Below, piece by piece: positions 21,851 to 28,643 of a stretch of DNA of 64,000 nt. Origin of the DNA: Streptosporangium carneum. GTDB lineage: Bacteria; Actinomycetota; Actinomycetes; Streptosporangiales; Streptosporangiaceae. A model generated the notes under the pieces. The model searched no databases. It had not been told where the DNA came from and saw only the letters and a program-made list of their open reading frames with translations. Positions within the stretch are counted from its first letter, which is position 1, and the number at the start of each line of letters is the position of its first letter. Made by a program: the position numbers and the translations under genes. The DNA lies in assembly GCF_027922005.1 (NCBI RefSeq), contig NZ_BSEV01000002.1, positions 248,001 to 312,000 of the forward strand, given 5' to 3'.

Positions 21851-22011
21851 CGGCGGCGCCCCCGCCCGCTCGTCGGAGGCGGCGGCGGCAGGCGAACCCG
21901 TCCCAGGACGAGCCTCAGGACGAGAGGGACTCCTCCGTGCAGGAGCGGGAACCTGCCGCCCGCCGCGCCCGCCAGAACGCGCGGGCGCGATCCGCCGGAC
22001 GCCCGGGACGG

Positions 22012-22551
22012 TCAGCCGCAACTGCGAGGACCGTCGTACTCCTCCTGACCATGCTCCGGCCCGCCTCCTCCGCCGCGCCCCGGCTCCGGCTCGGCGGCCC
22101 GCAGCCCCTCGAGCACGGCGTGGGAGATGCCGGTGAGCGAGTCGAGCTCGTCGGCGCTCAGCCGGTCGATCAGCCAGCGCCGGATGTGCGCGGTACGGCG
22201 CGGCATCGCCCTGTCGATGGCGGCACGGCCCGCCTCGGTGAGCACGACCACCGCGCCGCGCGGGGCCTCGGCGCACTGTTCACGGACCAGCAGGCCGCGC
22301 TCGGCCATGCGGGTGAGGTGGTGGTGCAGCCTGCTCTTCTCGTAGTCGATGAAACCACCGAGCTCGAAGGGGCGCAGCCGCCCCCCGGGGGCCTGCGCCA
22401 GGGCCGTCAGCACCGCGAAGTCGGGTTCGGAGAGCCCCGTGTCGCGCTGCAGCTGCTGGCCGAGATGCCGCCAGAAGCGCACCTGCATCTCGAAGAACGC
22501 GACCCAGGCACGCTCCTCCCGCTCGTCGAGTCCCTCCCCGGTGTCGCTCAT
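22012..22551 (-). CDS. MarR-family regulator of the adjacent FMN reductase
   Basis: The 179-residue winged-helix regulator has the core LSEPDFAVLTALAQAPGGRLRPFELGGFIDYEKSRLHHHLTRMAERGLLVREQ and the wing GAVVVLTEAGRAAI. It ends in a low-complexity Gly/Glu tail. It is divergent from a flavin reductase gene, the standard MarR layout for control of redox-stress genes. ATG 22551 was chosen since the family starts here; the frame is open further upstream across the promoter. A double dyad lies between the two genes. Confidence 0.91.
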   Translation of the reverse strand: MSDTGEGLDEREERAWVAFFEMQVRFWRHLGQQLQRDTGLSEPDFAVLTALAQAPGGRLRPFELGGFIDYEKSRLHHHLTRMAERGLLVREQCAEAPRGAVVVLTEAGRAAIDRAMPRRTAHIRRWLIDRLSADELDSLTGISHAVLEGLRAAEPEPGRGGGGGPEHGQEEYDGPRSCG

Positions 22552-22570
22552 ACCCGGAATCCTATCGGCA

Positions 22571-22618
22571 GTTGACGTGTCACCCTCGAAGCTCCTACGG
22601 TCAAGGTGACACATCAAC
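22571..22618. promoter_or_regulatory. Double operator between MarR and FMN reductase genes
   Basis: Two 14-bp arms, GTTGACGTGTCACC (22571-22584) and its near reverse complement (22605-22618), match at 13 of 14 positions and are 20 bp apart. Each arm alone contains a TGAC-N2-GTCA-like dyad. The site lies 19 bp from both start codons, so a bound regulator would shut both promoters. Confidence 0.7.
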
Positions 22619-22636
22619 TCAGCCAAGGCGGACCGA

Positions 22637-23197
22637 ATGATCAAGATCGGCATCATCGTCGGCAGCACCCGGCCGGGCCGTACGGCCGAACCCGTCGCCC
22701 ACTGGGTGCGGAACGTCGCGGACAAGCGCGGCGACGCCGAGTTCGAACTGGTCGACATCGCCGACTACGACCTGCCGCACCTGGACGAGGAGTTCCTGCC
22801 CGTGCAGGGGCTGTACGCGCGGCCGCACACCCTGGCATGGGCCCGGAAGATCGACGAGTTCGACGGCTACGTCATCGTCACCCCCGAGTACAACCACTCG
22901 ACCTCGGGCGCCCTCAAGAACGCCCTCGACTTCCTCTACAGGGAGTGGAACAACAAGGCGGTCGGCTTCGTCTCCTACGGCGGCGCCGGAGGCGTGCGCG
23001 CGGTCGAACACCTGCGCCTGGTCGCCGGAGAGCTCCAGCTCGCCGACGTCCGCGCGCAGGTCGAGCTGAGCCTGTTCACCGACTTCGAGAACTTCACGGT
23101 GTTCGCGCCCGCCACCCGCCAGGAGGGCACGCTCACCACGATGCTCGACCAGCTCGTCGCCTGGAGCGGCGCGCTCAGGACCCTCCGGGCGGCCTGA
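22637..23197 (+). CDS. NADPH-dependent FMN reductase / quinone reductase
   Basis: The 186-residue flavodoxin-like protein has the FMN phosphate loop GSTRPGR (residues about 9-15), TPEYNHSTSGALKNALDFLY (the PEYN motif) and VSYGGAGGVRAVEHLR. Relatives reduce FMN, quinones, chromate or azo dyes with NADPH. AAGGCGG precedes the ATG. Control by the divergent MarR regulator implies induction by an electrophile or quinone, which is inference from context. Confidence 0.92.
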   Translation: MIKIGIIVGSTRPGRTAEPVAHWVRNVADKRGDAEFELVDIADYDLPHLDEEFLPVQGLYARPHTLAWARKIDEFDGYVIVTPEYNHSTSGALKNALDFLYREWNNKAVGFVSYGGAGGVRAVEHLRLVAGELQLADVRAQVELSLFTDFENFTVFAPATRQEGTLTTMLDQLVAWSGALRTLRAA

Positions 23198-23382
23198 GCG
23201 TCCCCCGATCGGCCGAACCGTCACCCGAGCCGCCGTTTCGCCGCCGAACGCCACAGGCGATGTCCAGCACCGGCGCGATGGACTTGTGTGACCGGTGGGA
23301 CAGGAAAGCATCCGTCGCCACGGAGAGGATTTGATCGGACACTCTCAGTGAGAATCCTTCCTCGATGAAAGGACGTCCCCTC

Positions 23383-23688
23383 TTGCCCACCGCACGCATC
23401 GCCTCCGGCAGCACCGCCCCCGGGCAGGGTTGGCAGGCCTACACCGCCAGCGGCATCCTCATCGACGTCGACACCACCTCCGCCCGTTTCACGGGCAACC
23501 CCGTCTACGTCACCTCCGTAGGCGGCGCGGGAGGCCAGTGGAACCTGGTCGGCCCCAGCGCCGTCTACAACATCACCCCCACCAGGTTCCGCGTCTACGT
23601 GCAGTGGCGCGACGGCTCGCCGTTGACGCCCGCGACGGCCCAGCAGTACGGCTGGTTCATCCAGTGGATCGGTTACGACAACCCCTGA
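23383..23688 (+). CDS. Small beta-rich domain protein of unknown function
   Basis: The 101-residue product is rich in Gly, Thr, Tyr and Trp with alternating beta-strand pattern: GWQAYTASGILIDVDTT, NPVYVTSVGGAGGQW, TRFRVYVQWRDGSPLTPATA, GWFIQWIGY. I have the impression of similar domains at the ends of secreted or phage-tail-associated proteins but cannot name a family. No signal peptide is present. TTG 23383 was preferred because AAAGGA lies 9 bp upstream. An in-frame ATG at 23365 overlaps that sequence and has no RBS of its own. A strong hairpin terminator follows directly. Confidence 0.72.
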   Translation: MPTARIASGSTAPGQGWQAYTASGILIDVDTTSARFTGNPVYVTSVGGAGGQWNLVGPSAVYNITPTRFRVYVQWRDGSPLTPATAQQYGWFIQWIGYDNP

Positions 23689-23706
23689 TCCCGTCCTGCC
23701 GAAGAC

Positions 23707-23735
23707 CGAAGGCGCCCGCGTCGCGGGCGCCTTCG
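23707..23735 (+). terminator. Strong hairpin terminator
   Basis: A 13-bp perfect stem (arms 23707-23719 and 23723-23735) with a 3-base loop begins 19 bp after the stop of the beta-rich protein gene. TTGT follows a few bases after the stem. Confidence 0.8.
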
Positions 23736-24016
23736 CGTTGTCGCCCCCACCGCCTTTCAGACGATCCGAAAGCGGAAGTTTCAGGGCCTCTTCAATCAGG
23801 GATTAAGGACATGCGTAACGCGCATTGCGCACGGATCCCTCTTATCGCCCCTTGTGATGAGGGAAAACCAGGCGAGCAAAAGATGCATAACTCACGAAGC
23901 GTGCGGGACCGCTACGCTACTCGATGACCTTCTCTTGAGGAACCTGTGGAAAAGCCGATGTGGCCGGACCCCGGGGCGGCGAAACCCATAAGGAGCCGAC
24001 AGAGAGGGTAAGGCGG
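23736..24016. other. Gene-free stretch before the 65-residue protein
   Basis: I see no gene here. Base composition drops towards AT from 23780 to 23900. Two overlapping small dyads (ATGCG-N5-CGCAT at 23811-23825 and GCGC-N3-GCGC at 23820-23830) suggest a regulatory or promoter region. No clear -35/-10 pair can be fixed. Confidence 0.4.
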
Positions 24017-24214
24017 ATGACAACTTCGCATTCCGGCGATGAGCCGGTGAAGGGGGGCGAGCAGGAGGAGACGGCTTCCGAGAAGCCGGCCTTCCGTCGT
24101 TCCCGCGCTGACCGCCTTCGTCGTCGTCTTCGCCTGGTGGTGCAGCTGGGCACGGTGGCCACCGTGCTCACCAAGCTGTATCTCACCATCCGCGAAGGCT
24201 GGCTCGGACTGTAG
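24017..24214 (+). CDS. Small basic protein with one hydrophobic helix
   Basis: The 65-residue product has an acidic, Ser/Glu-rich first half, an Arg cluster (FRRSRADRLRRRLR) and a hydrophobic segment LVVQLGTVATVLTKLYL near the C-terminus. This positive-inside pattern would suit a single-pass or peripheral membrane protein. GAGAGGG lies 8 bp upstream of the chosen ATG; the frame opens earlier at 23960. I do not recognise a family. The next gene, a large regulator, follows after 154 bp on the same strand. Confidence 0.5.
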   Translation: MTTSHSGDEPVKGGEQEETASEKPAFRRSRADRLRRRLRLVVQLGTVATVLTKLYLTIREGWLGL

Positions 24215-24368
24215 CGAGTCCAAGCCAGCCGGCGGCGCACCGGGCGGGGGTTCCGTGAACAGTTCCAGCTGGGCCGGGACCTCCGCCTTTTTGGTTCCGT
24301 CGTCGGTTATTACACCGCGACGGCTGAACACCTGGCTCTATCTCTATACAGCTAGATGGTATCCGCCG

Positions 24369-27056
24369 ATGAATAATGTTCTCCGCCTTACAGGCGCGAC
24401 CCTCGACGTCCTCGAAGTCCTCGCCGCCGCCGACGGGCAGACCGTGTACGGCCTGCAGATCGCGGCCGCCACCAGAAGGCCGACCGGCACGGTGTATCCC
24501 CTGCTCGCCCGTCTGGAGGATCGCGGCTGGCTGGAAGGCGGGTGGGAGAGCGACGACGGCGCGCGCGGCAGGGGCCCGAGACGCCGTTACTACCGCGTCA
24601 CCGGCGAAGGCCGCGAGCACGTCGCCGCCGCCCTGCGCAGGCGTGAGCGCAAGGTCCCCCCGCCCCCGCCGGCGACCGCCGCACGCCCTGACCGCTTCCT
24701 GCCCCCGCCGGGCGGCGCGGTAGACGCGGAACAGGTCATCGGCGAGTTCGTGCACGAGCTTCGCGTGTTGCGCGAGCGGGCGGGAGCGCTCTCGCTCAGG
24801 CAGCTGGCGGCGCGCACCTACTACAGCCCGGCGGCCCTGTCCGAGGCGTTCGCGGGCCGTACCCTCCCCTCGGAGAGGCTGCTCGAGGCGATCGTGTCGG
24901 CCTGCGCCGGAGACTCCCGCGAGTGGACGCTGCGCCGTTCCACGGCCGAGCAGAGCATCAGGCACGGAATCCGCATCCCGCACCGCTTCGAGGACTTCCA
25001 CCCGCTGGGAGTCCAGTGGGTGGAGACGGCCCTGTCCCGGTGCGGCCTCCAGCGGGCCGACATCGAGGACGTCGCCCAGGAGACGCTGCTGGCTGCCTAC
25101 CGGCACTGGCCGTCGGCGATTCCCAACCTGCGGCAGTGGATATCGCAGCACGCCCAGCGGACGGCCGCGGCCCTCAGCCGGGGGCCCCTGCGGCCCTGGC
25201 ACCTGGACGGGACCTACCTTCCCGCCCTCGACCTCGACCTGGGCGTGGCGCCTCCCGAGCGCGGGGAGCTGCGCCACGGGGACGTCGCCGACGACGTGGT
25301 GGCACGGCTGGCGGCCGACGACCTGCTCCGGAGCATGGACCGGCGCACGGCGCAGGTCGTCCACCTCGTGAGCCATGGCTTCACGACCGCCGAGATCGCC
25401 GAACGGCTCGCGATGACGGCCGTCGCCGTCGAAGGGCGCAGACGTCGGCTGCGGACCCGCTTCCGTCTCGACGGCGCCTCCTCGGTCACCGCGGAGCACG
25501 CCCGCTACCTGCGCCACCTCGCCCGCCTGCGCGACGAGGCGGGCAACCCGTCGCTGCGGAGGATGGCGGGCCAGGTCGGCTACAGCCACACGCACATCGC
25601 CGCCGTGCTCGCGGGAGCGGCTCCCCTGCCGGACTGGGAGTTCACCGCGCGGCTCGTGGGATTCCTCGGCGGCGAGGTGAGAACGGCACGCGCGCTGTGG
25701 GAGGAGGCCCACGCGTTCGGGGAGCCCGTGGAACCGGACAACGACGCGGAGGCGGCGGCCAGGGTCGGCGACACGCTCACCCTCTGGAAGCTCACCGACC
25801 ATCTGGAGCAGGCGGGCAAGACGATCGAGGCCGTACAGGTCTGGTGGGACGCGGCCGAAGCCGGGGACACCTACGCGATGGCGATGACGGCCGAGCTCCT
25901 GGTGCGCCTGGGCGACCGCGAGGAGGCGGAGACCTGGCTGCGCCGGGCCGCGGACGCCGGTGACGCCGAAGCCTGGCGCAGGCTCATCCACCTCCTGGAG
26001 CAGACGGGCCGCACCGAGGAGGCCATCGACGCCTGGCGGCACGCCGCGAACACCGGCGCGGTCGAGGCCCGGCAGGAGCTCACCCGCCTCCTGGAACAGA
26101 CGGGCCGCACCGAGGAGGCCATCGACGCCTGGCGGCACGCCGCGAACACCGGCGACCTGTCCGCCACCCGCAAACTCACCCGCCTCCTGGAGCAGACAGG
26201 CCGCACCGAGGAGGCCGTCGACGCCTGGCGGCACGCCGCGAACACCGGCGCGGTCGAGGCCCGGCAGGAGCTCACCCGCCTCCTGGAACAGACGGGCCGC
26301 ACCGAGGAGGCCATCGACGCCTGGCAGCGGGTCGCGGAGAGCGGCGACCTGTCCGCCACCCGCAGGCTCACACGACTTCTGCGGGGAGCGGGCCGGACCG
26401 AGGAGGCCGTCGAGGCATGGCGACGCGCCGTCGACACGGGTGAGGCGGGCGGGGCCGGTGACGTCCAGGCCCGGCAGGAGCTCACCCGCCTCCTGGAGCA
26501 GACAGGCCGCACCGAGGAGGCCGTCGAGGTCTGGCGGCACGTCGCCATCACCGGTGACGTCCAGGCCCGGCAGGAGCTCACCCGCCTCCTGGAGCAGACA
26601 GGCCGCACCGAGGAGGCCGTCGAGGTCTGGCGGCACGTCGCCATCACCGCCGACGACCCGGCCCAGCGGACGCTCGCCCACCAGGCCCTCACCCGCCTCA
26701 CCGACAGGCCCCTGTCGAGTCTGCGCGTCGAATACGAGCTGCGGGCCGCCGCGCACACCGGAGACGACCTCGCCCTGCTCGCCCTCGTCCATCTTCTCGA
26801 CCAGGAGGGACGGCACCGAGAGGCGGAGGCCGTCCTCCACTCGGCGGCGATAGCCGGAAACGCCCTCGCGGCCCAGACGATCTCGCACCGCCTCACCACC
26901 GCGAACGGAACGCCCTCCCACTCCGCCGCACCGCCGTCCCAGGCCGTCTCTCAGGCCCCGGTACGGCGAGCGGCGTCACAGGGCCGACCGGCGCGGAGCC
27001 GCGCCGAGCACCCGACGGCCGATCCGGCGAACACCTCGAAAGGGACCGCTCACTGA
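24369..27056 (+). CDS. PadR-HTH-sigma-like-HTH-repeat fusion regulator
   Basis: The 895-residue protein combines at least five modules. A PadR winged helix (residues 1-94: YGLQIAAATRRPTGTVYPLLARLEDRGWLEGGW) is followed by an XRE-like HTH at about 127-181 (LSLRQLAARTYYSPAALSEAFAG). A sigma-70 region-2-like helix pair at about 215-270 (ADIEDVAQETLLAAYRHW) and a region-4-like HTH at about 318-365 (RTAQVVHLVSHGFTTAEIAERL) come next, then a second XRE-like HTH at about 377-435 (RRMAGQVGYSHTHIAAVLAG). The rest is TPR/Sel1-like helical repeats, including seven almost identical 32-residue units at about 542-772 (LLEQTGRTEEAIDAW). It looks like a cytoplasmic DNA-binding scaffold or an alternative sigma factor with a repeat sensor. 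ATG 24369 was chosen at the PadR start; no RBS is seen, so it may be leaderless. Targets are unknown. Confidence 0.85.
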   Translation: MNNVLRLTGATLDVLEVLAAADGQTVYGLQIAAATRRPTGTVYPLLARLEDRGWLEGGWESDDGARGRGPRRRYYRVTGEGREHVAAALRRRERKVPPPPPATAARPDRFLPPPGGAVDAEQVIGEFVHELRVLRERAGALSLRQLAARTYYSPAALSEAFAGRTLPSERLLEAIVSACAGDSREWTLRRSTAEQSIRHGIRIPHRFEDFHPLGVQWVETALSRCGLQRADIEDVAQETLLAAYRHWPSAIPNLRQWISQHAQRTAAALSRGPLRPWHLDGTYLPALDLDLGVAPPERGELRHGDVADDVVARLAADDLLRSMDRRTAQVVHLVSHGFTTAEIAERLAMTAVAVEGRRRRLRTRFRLDGASSVTAEHARYLRHLARLRDEAGNPSLRRMAGQVGYSHTHIAAVLAGAAPLPDWEFTARLVGFLGGEVRTARALWEEAHAFGEPVEPDNDAEAAARVGDTLTLWKLTDHLEQAGKTIEAVQVWWDAAEAGDTYAMAMTAELLVRLGDREEAETWLRRAADAGDAEAWRRLIHLLEQTGRTEEAIDAWRHAANTGAVEARQELTRLLEQTGRTEEAIDAWRHAANTGDLSATRKLTRLLEQTGRTEEAVDAWRHAANTGAVEARQELTRLLEQTGRTEEAIDAWQRVAESGDLSATRRLTRLLRGAGRTEEAVEAWRRAVDTGEAGGAGDVQARQELTRLLEQTGRTEEAVEVWRHVAITGDVQARQELTRLLEQTGRTEEAVEVWRHVAITADDPAQRTLAHQALTRLTDRPLSSLRVEYELRAAAHTGDDLALLALVHLLDQEGRHREAEAVLHSAAIAGNALAAQTISHRLTTANGTPSHSAAPPSQAVSQAPVRRAASQGRPARSRAEHPTADPANTSKGTAH
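25992..26681 (+). repeat. Seven tandem 96-bp coding repeats
   Basis: Units start at 25992, 26088, 26184, 26280, 26376, 26490 and 26586. The period is exactly 96 bp, except that one unit carries an 18-bp insertion. Several units are identical over long stretches at the nucleotide level, including third codon positions, which points to recent duplication or gene conversion. Each encodes a 32-residue helical repeat of the fusion regulator. Confidence 0.9.
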
Positions 27057-27065
27057 GCTCAGGAA

Positions 27066-27086
27066 GGACCGCTCGTCGGGCGGTCC
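27066..27086. terminator. Hairpin between convergent genes
   Basis: A 7-bp stem (GGACCGC / GCGGTCC) with a 7-base loop lies in the 70-bp gap between the fusion regulator and the convergent MarR gene. It can serve both directions. Confidence 0.55.
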
Positions 27087-27126
27087 CTCAAGAGGGGCCG
27101 CCCAGCGGGAGTCGCCCGGGAGTCGT

Positions 27127-27630
27127 TCAGGAGGAGGCCGTTCGGCGCGATCCGAGGTCCGCGCACGCGCCGCTCCTCGCGAGCCGTACGGCCTGCTCCC
27201 GTCCCACCTTGGCGGTCCGGCACAGGTAGTCGCCGATGACGGTGAGCTCGTCGTCGGTGTACCTCTCGAGGACCTCGCCGAACGCCTGGCCAGGCACGTC
27301 CCACTCCCGTCCGACCTCGGCCGTCGGATCGGACGCCAGGGTGACCAGAGTTCGCCTGCGGTCGCCGGGATCGGCGCACCGTACGACGAGGCCCGCCTTC
27401 TCAAGGCGGTCGACCAGCCGGGTGGCCGATCCCGGGGTCAGCCCGGTCAGTCTGGCGATCTCGCCCGTGCTCAGCGGCTCCTCCTCCAGATCGAGCAGGC
27501 TCAGGCACTGCACGTCGGTGGGATGCAGCCCCAGCCGGTCGGCCAGGGCCTGGTTGAACAGCGTGTAAGCCGCGTAGTGCCGTCTGCTCTCAGCGATGAC
27601 CCGCTCGAGCAGCTCCGCCCGGTTTGACAC
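27127..27630 (-). CDS. MarR-family transcriptional regulator
   Basis: The 167-residue winged-helix protein has the HTH LHPTDVQCLSLLDLEEEPLSTGEIARLTGLTPGSATRLVDRLEKAGLVVR and the wing DRRRTLVTL (the conserved D-x-R motif). The GTG start has AGGGAGG 5 bp upstream. It is divergent from an NAD(P)-binding protein gene; the two share a 173-bp gap with a 29-bp dyad, so it most likely represses that gene and itself. It is a different subfamily from the MarR gene at 22 kb. Confidence 0.92.
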   Translation of the reverse strand: MSNRAELLERVIAESRRHYAAYTLFNQALADRLGLHPTDVQCLSLLDLEEEPLSTGEIARLTGLTPGSATRLVDRLEKAGLVVRCADPGDRRRTLVTLASDPTAEVGREWDVPGQAFGEVLERYTDDELTVIGDYLCRTAKVGREQAVRLARSGACADLGSRRTASS

Positions 27631-27654
27631 CGAGCCTCCCTTGCCTCAAATTAT

Positions 27655-27683
27655 GTGCGCGACGCAAAGTTTGCGTGACGCAC
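27655..27683. promoter_or_regulatory. 29-bp dyad operator for the divergent MarR gene
   Basis: The core ACGCAAA-G-TTTGCGT is a perfect 7-bp dyad, extended outward by GTGCG and CGCAC after two unmatched bases on each side. It begins 25 bp upstream of the MarR GTG, in an AT-rich stretch that probably contains both promoters. Confidence 0.7.
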
Positions 27684-27803
27684 AATATGTGTCACACTCA
27701 TACTCTACGCGATGCCCTTCCGCGTCTCTCCTGCCTCCCGCGATGCGGACCTCACTTCCCGCGAGGCTCGGAGCAACCAGAACACCACCGAGAGGAACAT
27801 GAC

Positions 27804-28643
27804 ATGACCATCCTTGTCACCGGAGGCCGTGGCCTCGTCGCCGGCACGCTCCTGCCCCTGCTGCACGGCAAGGGTCACGACGTGCGCGTGGCGTCCAGCG
27901 ATCCGGCGAAGCTCAACCCACCCGAGGGCGTGCCGACGGTGAAGTGCGACCTCACCGACCCGACCACCTTCCCCGCCGCCCTCGACGGCGTCACCTCGGT
28001 CTTCCTCTACGCGGAGCCCGCACACATCGACGCGTTCGTCGAGCGGGCCGTCGACGCCGGAGTGCGGCACATCGTGCTGCTGTCGTCCAGTTCGGTGATC
28101 GCGCCGGACGCGGACACCAACCCCATCGCCAGATCCCACCGCGCGGTCGAGCAGGCCCTGACGGCCTCCCCCATCGAGACGACGCTGCTGTGGCCCGGCG
28201 CCTTCGCGAGCAACGCGCTGCAGTGGTCGTGGTCCATCAAGTCCACCGGAACAATCGACCTGCCCTACCCGAACGCCCATGTCGACCCCATCCACGAGGC
28301 CGACATCGCGGACGTCGCGCTGGCCGTGCTCACCGATCCCGCGTTGAGCGGCAAGGAGTACCACCTGACAGGCCCCGAATCCCTCAGCTTCCAGGAGCAG
28401 CTCGACCGCATCGCCCACGTGGCCGGTCGGCCCCTCTCGATCAACGTCATCAGCGAGGAGGCGTGGAAGGAGGAGATGACGAAGTACGTCCCCGGCGAGT
28501 TCGCCGACGCCCTCCTCACCTGGTGGCGAGAGCACGACGGCTCGCCCACCGAGACCACCGGGACCGTCGAGCAGGTGACGGGCCGCCCCGCCCGCTCCTT
28601 CGCCACCTGGGCCGAGGACCACGCGGACGTCTTCAGGAACTGA
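27804..28643 (+). CDS. NAD(P)H-binding NmrA/SDR-like oxidoreductase
   Basis: The 279-residue atypical short-chain dehydrogenase has the Rossmann glycine motif TGGRGLVAGTLL at residues 6-17, CDLTDP marking the second strand, HIVLLSSSSV, and LLWPGAFASNAL in place of a classical YxxxK site, as in NmrA/QOR2-type quinone reductases. It probably binds NADPH and may reduce quinones. AGAGGA precedes the ATG. Divergent MarR control again suggests a response to redox-active compounds. Confidence 0.88.
   Translation: MTILVTGGRGLVAGTLLPLLHGKGHDVRVASSDPAKLNPPEGVPTVKCDLTDPTTFPAALDGVTSVFLYAEPAHIDAFVERAVDAGVRHIVLLSSSSVIAPDADTNPIARSHRAVEQALTASPIETTLLWPGAFASNALQWSWSIKSTGTIDLPYPNAHVDPIHEADIADVALAVLTDPALSGKEYHLTGPESLSFQEQLDRIAHVAGRPLSINVISEEAWKEEMTKYVPGEFADALLTWWREHDGSPTETTGTVEQVTGRPARSFATWAEDHADVFRN

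What the first reader, a model, noticed from the sequence alone, without database searches (positions are those of the whole stretch)
24369..27056. PadR, two XRE-like HTHs, sigma-like regions and a repeat sensor fused in one 895-residue protein
Five DNA-binding or sigma-like modules are followed by helical repeats, a combination I do not know as a named family. The PadR head would normally dimerise and bind a short operator, while the sigma region 2/4-like pair would contact RNA polymerase. Together with a repeat-based protein-protein or ligand scaffold this could be a one-protein transcription switch. The gene sits in an accessory segment of an otherwise conserved locus.
Basis: partly seen in the sequence, partly recalled or inferred. 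Interest (0 to 1): 0.78.

Follow-up and report, generated by a model that had tools for sequence, protein, structure and literature searches.

The report
Five-module bacterial transcription regulator fusion
A rare bacterial gene joins a repressor head, two further DNA-binding domains, a sigma-factor-like core and a long protein-binding coil in one protein, and it travels with its own control site and a tiny neighbour gene, so it looks like a self-contained gene switch of a make-up I have not found described.

Summary
The 895-residue ORF (24369-27056 +) encodes PadR, XRE/HTH_31, sigma-2, sigma-4, a second XRE and a TPR-like superhelix, in that order. In the window protein the sigma matches are below curated cut-offs. 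With seven homologues they hold at E up to 0.001: Sigma70_r4_2 in 7 of 7, the ECF model TIGR02937 in 5 of 7 (best 6e-9), but Pfam sigma-2 in only 1 of 7. The family profile's best solved match is M. tuberculosis SigH (4e-10). The order recurs in 7 of 297 family genomes, 4 of 68 genera, in four different neighbourhoods.

Stand-alone PadR relatives often have that site before their own genes (14 of 29, against 1 of 290 control stretches), so the PadR head very likely autoregulates.

Untested: that the sigma core binds RNA polymerase and that the TPR coil senses the small protein. The sigma modules are the least conserved DNA-binding parts and sigma-4 the least confident in the model. It resembles TPR-bearing ECF42 sigma factors but fits no family I found. 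Interest 0.6.

The parts
24369..27056 (+). 895-aa multi-module regulator gene (PadR - XRE - sigma2 - sigma4 - XRE - TPR-like superhelix)
24384..24647 (+). PadR winged helix, residues 6-93, subfamily-2 type with one short C-terminal helix
   Evidence: PadR 1.4e-10, 7 of 7 homologues at E up to 0.001; H9-20, H28-35, H39-51, E55-59, E73-77, H79-93; most conserved module, mean pairwise identity 0.66
24726..24965 (+). first XRE/HTH_31 domain, residues 120-199
   Evidence: HTH_31 best stretch 126-182, HTH_31 in 7 of 7; five helices
24981..25178 (+). ECF sigma region 2-like module, residues 205-270
   Evidence: Sigma70_r2 sub-threshold (1.2e-3; 1 of 7 at 0.001); full-length ECF models and profile match to SigH/SigL; three helices
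25281..25469 (+). ECF sigma region 4-like module, residues 305-367
   Evidence: Sigma70_r4_2 in 7 of 7 at E up to 0.001, best 4.7e-11; four helices, modest confidence
25491..25718 (+). second XRE domain, residues 375-450
   Evidence: HTH_31 reports two stretches (place of the second not printed); five helices H375-449
25743..26903 (+). TPR-like superhelix of 24 helices, mostly 32-residue units, residues 459-845
   Evidence: TPR models, AlphaFold mean pLDDT 83, Foldseek best O-GlcNAc transferase TPR 3.4e-11; 96-base tandem units in DNA
24017..24214 (+). small neighbour gene, 65 aa: acidic N-terminal half, basic/hydrophobic C-terminal half
   Evidence: present in 7 of 7 loci, 59-68 aa with the starts I chose, stop 154-159 nt before the regulator (203 in L032); third codon positions change most; no Pfam family for the window product, only a weak chance-level match for L029
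24197..24230 (+). hairpin H1 over the stop of the small gene
   Evidence: 4 pairs changed on both sides
24243..24287 (+). hairpin H2, 13 bp
   Evidence: 97% of cells paired, 2 pairs changed on both sides
24293..24330 (+). hairpin H3 with loop ATTACA
   Evidence: 3 pairs changed on both sides, 82% of cells paired; ATTACA invariant in seven; stem not clear in L032
24343..24356 (+). palindrome TCTATACAGCTAGA, predicted PadR site next to the regulator's start
   Evidence: only exact match in the own genome; same kind of site before stand-alone PadR genes

Best explanation
It is an accessory, self-contained transcription switch. (1) The PadR head, probably a dimer, binds TCTAYAYANNTAGA just before its own start codon and represses or tunes its own gene (supported by comparison; about 0.85). 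(2) The two XRE domains flank an ECF-sigma-derived core that docks on RNA polymerase, or at least on promoter DNA, and directs transcription of target genes, possibly including the small upstream gene (inferred; about 0.45 that it still binds RNA polymerase). (3) The long TPR superhelix gates this activity by binding another protein (inferred; about 0.6 for a protein ligand, about 0.3 that the ligand is the 59-68-aa neighbour product). (4) The hairpin stretch between the two genes acts as a structured 3' end or leader RNA that sets the ratio of the two products (inferred; about 0.4).
For: Module order kept in 7 genomes of 4 genera. Sigma homology at family level. PadR site: a model built from the 7 cassette sites scores 10 bits or more within 120 nt upstream of 14 of 29 PadR-type genes, against 1 of 290 control stretches from the same loci; TCTA-N4-8-TAGA lies within 200 nt of 4 of 29, against a mean of 0.09 and a maximum of 2 in 500 shuffles; the L049 and L054 sites equal the L032 cassette site, in the opposite orientation; the only exact site in the own genome is the regulator's own. 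RNA model R1 has strong hits in 7 of 297 genomes, the 7 that hold the gene, including L032 which was not in the model (5.8e-12). Among the ORFs I kept, no other gene is shared between the four neighbourhoods apart from a general ABC ATPase similarity. TPR fold. The C-terminal TPR part is essential in ECF42 sigma factors (PMC8999054, section read).
Against: Sigma-2 and sigma-4 are the least conserved DNA-binding modules (mean pairwise identity 0.43 and 0.42, against PadR 0.66, XRE1 0.58, XRE2 0.50). Pfam sigma-2 is matched by 1 of 7 at 0.001, and the match covers profile positions 9-58 of 71, so the far end, which by general knowledge reads the -10 element, is not matched. The window protein scores 17-18 bits against a cut-off of 42.9 for the ECF model. 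Sigma-4 has low to moderate pLDDT, and Foldseek with the N-terminal model gave no match at E 0.001 or better. No target promoter was found. The site evidence does not tell repression from activation, and 15 of 29 PadR-type genes score below 10. Binding of the small protein is not tested. If the mRNA starts at or near the start codon, the hairpins are not in the regulator's mRNA.
Confidence: 0.5

Rival explanations
1. The sigma-derived core no longer works as a sigma factor. It is an extra DNA-binding or scaffold unit, so the protein is a large multi-site repressor or architectural regulator with several kinds of DNA contact and a TPR docking arm.
For: Sigma modules are the least conserved of the DNA-binding modules; sigma-2 passes 0.001 in Pfam in 1 of 7 members and below its cut-off; the end of sigma-2 varies among the seven.
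Against: The sigma-2/linker/sigma-4 order is kept in the alignment of all seven, full-length ECF models match 5 of 7 at 0.001, and D231 and D234 in the 2.2-like stretch are invariant. The fold was predicted for the window protein only.
Confidence: 0.33
2. A peptide-signalling receptor that works like the RRNPP systems: HTH plus TPR receptor, with the small neighbouring gene as propeptide.
For: Small gene directly upstream in 7 of 7 loci; TPR coil with XRE domains; the published signature asks for a small propeptide, TPRs and adjacency (PMC10075063, passages).
Against: Receptor of 803-950 aa instead of 250-500; the small protein's N-terminal half is acidic and its most hydrophobic stretch is C-terminal and weak to moderate (maximum 19-residue hydropathy 0.5-2.1), so no secretion signal is visible (SignalP not available).
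Confidence: 0.12
3. A regulator of a conflict or defence island: an accessory, fast-changing sensor switch that uses the same kind of XRE head as the host's large XRE-NTPase proteins.
For: Own-genome proteins with a related XRE head run on into P-loop NTPase-like sequence (L014-L018, read by eye); in g27 the regulator is 65% or 40% identical where flanking genes are mostly 79-100%; patchy presence; an ECF-like HTH is recorded in TRADD-N conflict proteins (PMC8195603, passages).
Against: PADLOC gave only weak, scattered matches (capH in 2 of 7, best 5e-4; two others in 1 of 7 each); among the ORFs kept, no effector or toxin gene is shared by the loci of different genera.
Confidence: 0.15

Closest known systems
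ECF42 sigma factors (C-terminal TPR extension)
   Same: ECF sigma-2/sigma-4 core and TPR-like repeats in one chain; presumed protein-gated activity
   Different: ECF42 has a C-terminal extension of about 200 residues rich in TPR (PMC8999054); here an XRE domain lies between sigma-4 and about 390 residues of repeats, and a PadR and an XRE domain precede sigma-2
ECF265 sigma factors (PadR repressor gene in the neighbourhood)
   Same: Pairing of a PadR regulator with an ECF sigma factor
   Different: In ECF265 PadR is recorded as a neighbouring protein (PMC8999054, passage); here it is the head of the same chain
PadR subfamily 2 regulators (LmrR type)
   Same: Winged helix with one C-terminal helix; site before its own gene shared with stand-alone PadR-type genes of the family
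   Different: Known subfamily-2 members are about 110 aa proteins (PMC3506622, passages)
RRNPP peptide receptors (PlcR, NprR, Rgg)
   Same: HTH plus TPR in one chain with a small adjacent gene
   Different: About twice the size, extra PadR and sigma modules, small product without a visible secretion signal
TRADD-N conflict proteins with an ECF-like HTH
   Same: ECF-like domain joined to C-terminal repeats such as TPR (PMC8195603, passages)
   Different: No TRADD-N family among the Pfam rows shown; PadR and XRE modules present instead

Membership tests
ECF sigma factor | sigma-2 and sigma-4 domains in order with a flexible linker | tested here: met
   TIGR02937 in 5 of 7 at 0.001 (best 6e-9) and 7 of 7 at E up to 1; SigH/SigL profile matches; low-confidence stretch 272-314 between them
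ECF sigma factor | curated score cut-off of the ECF model for the window protein | tested here: not met
   TIGR02937 18.1 bits (464-aa part) and 17.2 bits (whole protein) against 42.9
ECF sigma factor | binds core RNA polymerase and starts transcription | not testable with these tools
   needs purified protein
ECF42 | C-terminal TPR extension of about 200 residues on an ECF core (that it follows sigma-4 directly and that nothing precedes sigma-2 is recalled) | tested here: not met
   XRE domain between sigma-4 and about 390 residues of repeats; PadR and XRE before sigma-2
PadR subfamily 2 | winged helix plus single C-terminal dimerisation helix (20-30 residues in the paper) | tested here: met
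   PadR 1.4e-10; single helix H79-93 after the wing, 15 residues, so on the short side; Foldseek rows for PadR chains weak (E 3.5e-3 and above, probability 0.99-1.00)
PadR subfamily 2 | protein of about 110 aa | tested here: not met
   895 aa
RRNPP | receptor of 250-500 aa with TPRs | tested here: not met
   TPRs present, but 895 aa
RRNPP | adjacent small propeptide gene (10-100 aa) | tested here: met
   59-68 aa in 7 of 7 loci
RRNPP | propeptide with Sec or PptAB export signal | tested here: inconclusive
   no N-terminal hydrophobic stretch; hydropathy only, SignalP not available
TRADD-N conflict protein | TRADD-N domain | tested here: inconclusive
   not among the 25 Pfam families shown of 62 nor the 11 at 0.001 for the first 464 residues

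The most novel reading that the evidence does not exclude
A new, portable class of one-protein sigma switch: a sigma core wired between a self-regulating PadR head, two XRE domains and a protein-reading TPR coil, encoded as a fixed unit with its own small partner protein and a structured RNA stretch, so that control of its own gene, promoter choice and signal gating all sit in a single chain.
Probability: 0.3. Interest if true: 0.8.

Novelty: new variant of a known kind. Interest (0 to 1): 0.6.

Why it matters
Sigma factors and operator-binding repressors are normally separate proteins. A single chain that holds both, with a likely autoregulatory site already identified and a fixed small neighbour gene, would let one ask directly how promoter recognition and repression are coupled. 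It also gives a compact candidate part for engineered switches in actinomycetes. If the sigma core turns out to be dead, it is still a clear case of sigma domains reused as ordinary DNA-binding modules.

Tried and rejected
Rejected: that the sigma call is chance. The window protein alone is sub-threshold, but Sigma70_r4_2 matches 7 of 7 homologues at 0.001, ECF models 5 of 7, and the family profile ranks SigH first in a search of 177,635 solved sequences.

Rejected: pentatricopeptide RNA binding of the repeats. Designed PPR proteins are the best sequence hits, but the units are mostly 32 residues and the best fold matches are TPR superhelices; one designed PPR chain is at rank 50 of the rows shown. 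RNA binding is not excluded.

Rejected: a phage or plasmid gene. No phage match. Of 37 plasmid records with a match none covers 80% of the query; the 20 listed cover 13-21%, all in the XRE or PadR part. No tRNA in the window. Flanking repeats and integrases were not searched for.

Rejected: a wide PadR regulon of this exact site in the own genome. One exact site plus one with one mismatch, against 6 hits of the reversed control pattern (the control's mismatches are not shown); an earlier pattern gave 2 hits against 4. Looser sites were not tested.

Rejected: a known RNA family for the hairpins. Rfam on 22000-28000 gave one chance-level hit elsewhere (E 0.2). The four other R1 hits (E 0.003-0.009) were taken as chance and not inspected; that search used stricter filters and scored 9 candidates in each listed genome. 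A first alignment with L032 gave no H3 in the consensus fold, so L032 was left out of A5 and R1. The dyads could in part be DNA sites whose arms change in step with a protein; a conserved loop with covarying arms favours RNA but does not prove it.

Led nowhere: the genome-contig scan confirmed one PadR-type relative among 81 candidate stretches (low sensitivity). Class sample of 394 genomes with residues 203-464: own genome plus one XRE-only match. Order sample of 200: four copies with the whole N-terminal half, all known; the other matches are PadR or XRE parts. Literature searches for such a fusion listed nothing that describes it; the library lacks most subscription papers, and of the listed papers I opened only four, in passages or one section.

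Caveats on counts: the 29 PadR-type loci are short PadR matches that were given loci; three (L040-L042) are from one genus and nearly identical. Control stretches lie 200-1400 nt upstream in the same loci and include coding DNA, so they are not a pure promoter control.
Full report
What was checked. The ORF at 24369-27056 (+) is open for 895 codons and starts with ATG. The window lies in an unnamed 9.84 Mb genome in 184 contigs. I scanned the protein with Pfam and NCBIfam, looked for relatives in genome samples, aligned the seven copies, predicted two structures and compared them with solved structures.

Modules. PadR (1.4e-10), HTH_31 (3.7e-13, two stretches) and TPR models (best 2.6e-14) are above their cut-offs in the window protein; Sigma70_r4_2 (4.4e-4) and Sigma70_r2 (1.2e-3) are below theirs. 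Over the first 464 residues of the seven homologues at E up to 0.001: HTH_31, PadR and Sigma70_r4_2 each in 7 of 7 (best 3e-18, 7.4e-13, 4.7e-11), Sigma70_r2 in 1 of 7; the ECF superfamily model in 5 of 7 (best 6e-9; the window protein is not among them, 1.6e-3) and SigE-fam_strep in 5 of 7 (best 3.6e-12). A profile of residues 1-464 puts M. tuberculosis SigH first (4.3e-10) and SigL second (6.1e-9), over sigma-2, linker and sigma-4. So sigma-4 is firm and sigma-2 rests on the full-length ECF models, the profile match and the fold. AlphaFold of residues 1-464 (7 sequences, mean pLDDT 72.6, pTM 0.38) gives a winged helix, a five-helix XRE, three sigma-2 helices, a low-confidence stretch 272-314, four sigma-4 helices starting at 306, and a second five-helix XRE; sigma-4 is the least confident module (10-residue means 36-81). 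Foldseek with this multi-module model gave no match at 1e-3 or better; its top rows, E 3.5e-3 to 2.5e-2, mix PadR, MarR and ECF sigma chains with unrelated ones such as RPC62 and Stl. The C-terminal 444 residues fold as 24 helices (mean pLDDT 83.1) and match TPR superhelices, best O-GlcNAc transferase at 3.4e-11. The DNA of the repeats contains near-identical 96-base units.

Distribution. Of 297 family genomes, 7 hold the N-terminal 464-residue part at 1.3e-87 or better, in 4 of 68 genera; of the 16 same-genus genomes listed only the own one holds it. In genus g27 it is present in 3 of 5 genomes. Samples of the order (200) and class (394) gave no such copy beyond those already found; these samples overlap the family sample. 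The four genera have four different neighbourhoods: among the ORFs I kept within about 8-10 kb on either side, no gene is shared between genera at E 1e-10 apart from the regulator and a general ABC ATPase similarity. In g27 the flanking genes are mostly 79-100% identical (one small ORF is at 73% and 50%), while the regulator is 65% (L029-L031) and 40% (L029-L032, L031-L032) identical. So this is an accessory unit that either moves or changes fast.

What travels with it. In all seven loci a 59-68-aa gene ends 154-159 nt before the regulator (203 nt in L032); the starts are my choice, three are GTG. Third codon positions change most (624, against 492 and 435 for first and second, over 1219 codon comparisons in 21 pairs that are not independent), which fits a real gene under moderate constraint. 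Its product has an acidic N-terminal half and a basic C-terminal half with a hydrophobic stretch whose hydropathy (0.5-2.1) does not make a clear membrane segment in most copies. Pfam has no match for the window product and one sub-threshold match (E 0.02) for L029; the L029 product has no match in the plasmid collection.

Structured stretch. Bases 24190-24371 fold with z-score -6.2 and the L029 counterpart with -7.2; no shuffle of 200 did as well. On the six-sequence alignment 9 pairs change on both sides against a shuffled mean of 4.7 (1 of 500 shuffles reach it) and 89.3% of cells pair (0 of 500), but the number of further pair types is not unusual (128 of 500); slid versions fall to 31-50% paired. 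The structure was drawn from these sequences, which leans both controls towards it, and six related sequences are few, so this is supportive rather than final. H3 is partly unaligned in L030 and not clear in L032. A covariance model of the six finds the seventh (L032) at 5.8e-12 and, over 297 genomes, hits the seven with the gene plus four others at 0.003-0.009 that I take as chance.

Operator. Just before the start codon all seven have TCTAYAYANNTAGA. I asked whether this is a PadR site: 29 PadR-type loci (short matches) were scored with a model built from the 7 cassette sites. Within 120 nt upstream, 14 of 29 score 10 or more, against 1 of 290 control stretches from the same loci. A plain motif count gave 4 of 29 against a mean of 0.09 in shuffles. 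L049 and L054 carry the exact L032 site in the opposite orientation; in several of these genes it runs into TAGAGT, which looks like a -10 box, a few bases from ATG (the -10 reading is from general knowledge). In the own genome the only exact match is the regulator's own promoter. Four of the own genome's PadR paralogues (L010-L013) score only 0.9-6.5, so they seem to use other sites. Autoregulation by the PadR head is therefore well supported by comparison, though its sign is not. The site arms never vary in the six sequences, which fits a DNA site and says nothing about RNA pairing.

Mechanism and doubts. I favour a switch in which PadR sets the level, the XRE-sigma core acts on promoters with RNA polymerase, and the TPR coil gates it, as is proposed for ECF42 factors whose TPR extension is essential (PMC8999054, section read). 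The strongest doubt is that sigma-2 and sigma-4 are the least conserved of the DNA-binding modules (0.43 and 0.42 mean pairwise identity, against 0.66, 0.58 and 0.50) and that sigma-2 is weak in Pfam. That leaves a real chance (about a third) that the sigma core is a reused DNA-binding unit. An RRNPP-like peptide receptor is possible in logic, but size and the missing N-terminal export signal argue against membership (PMC10075063 passages).

Comparison with what is known. ECF265 has PadR as a neighbour (PMC8999054 passage), ECF42 has TPRs in the same chain; neither is recorded there with the order found here. An ECF-like HTH joined to repeats is recorded in TRADD-N proteins (PMC8195603 passages), but no TRADD-N match is among the families shown. 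Literature searches listed no description of this fusion; the library holds open-licence papers only. I file it as a new variant of a known kind (ECF-type regulators with extra regulatory domains), not as a member of a named family.

Noticed in passing
26932-27018 (C-terminal tail of the gene): Stretches of about 40-65 bases of the disordered tail match short GC-rich dispersed repeats (GCGCCGGTACGGCGAGCGGCG-like) at 12 places in the genome with 75-88% identity (six loci aligned); the tail seems built partly from a small dispersed repeat.
   Followed up: partly
L014, L015, L016, L017, L018: Own-genome proteins whose N-terminal XRE head resembles XRE1 run on into P-loop NTPase-like sequence (read by eye, not scanned); the XRE head is shared with large NTPase proteins.
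   Followed up: partly
L029 3084-6167; L031 4224-6557 counted on the reversed locus: Beside the cassette in two g27 genomes lies a large ORF (777 aa in L031) whose N-terminus looks by eye like another ECF sigma region 2.
   Followed up: no
25977-26679: Repeat units are nearly identical at the DNA level (96-base period), and the C-terminal regions of the seven copies differ in length (355-518 aa), suggesting recent gain and loss of repeats.
   Followed up: partly
L038-L063, upstream of PadR-type genes: Many of them carry a site like TCTACATAGNTAGA next to a TAGAGT -10-like box a few bases before ATG, suggesting nearly leaderless autoregulated PadR genes.
   Followed up: partly
about 23900-24016 and the same place in L027-L031: Upstream of the small gene there are conserved stretches (GCTACGCT in five loci, GGTTCCCGCGGGAxC in four) that may be its promoter and operator.
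   Followed up: no
23365-23688: 107-aa ORF with no Pfam match at 1e-5 between an FMN reductase gene and the cassette.
   Followed up: no
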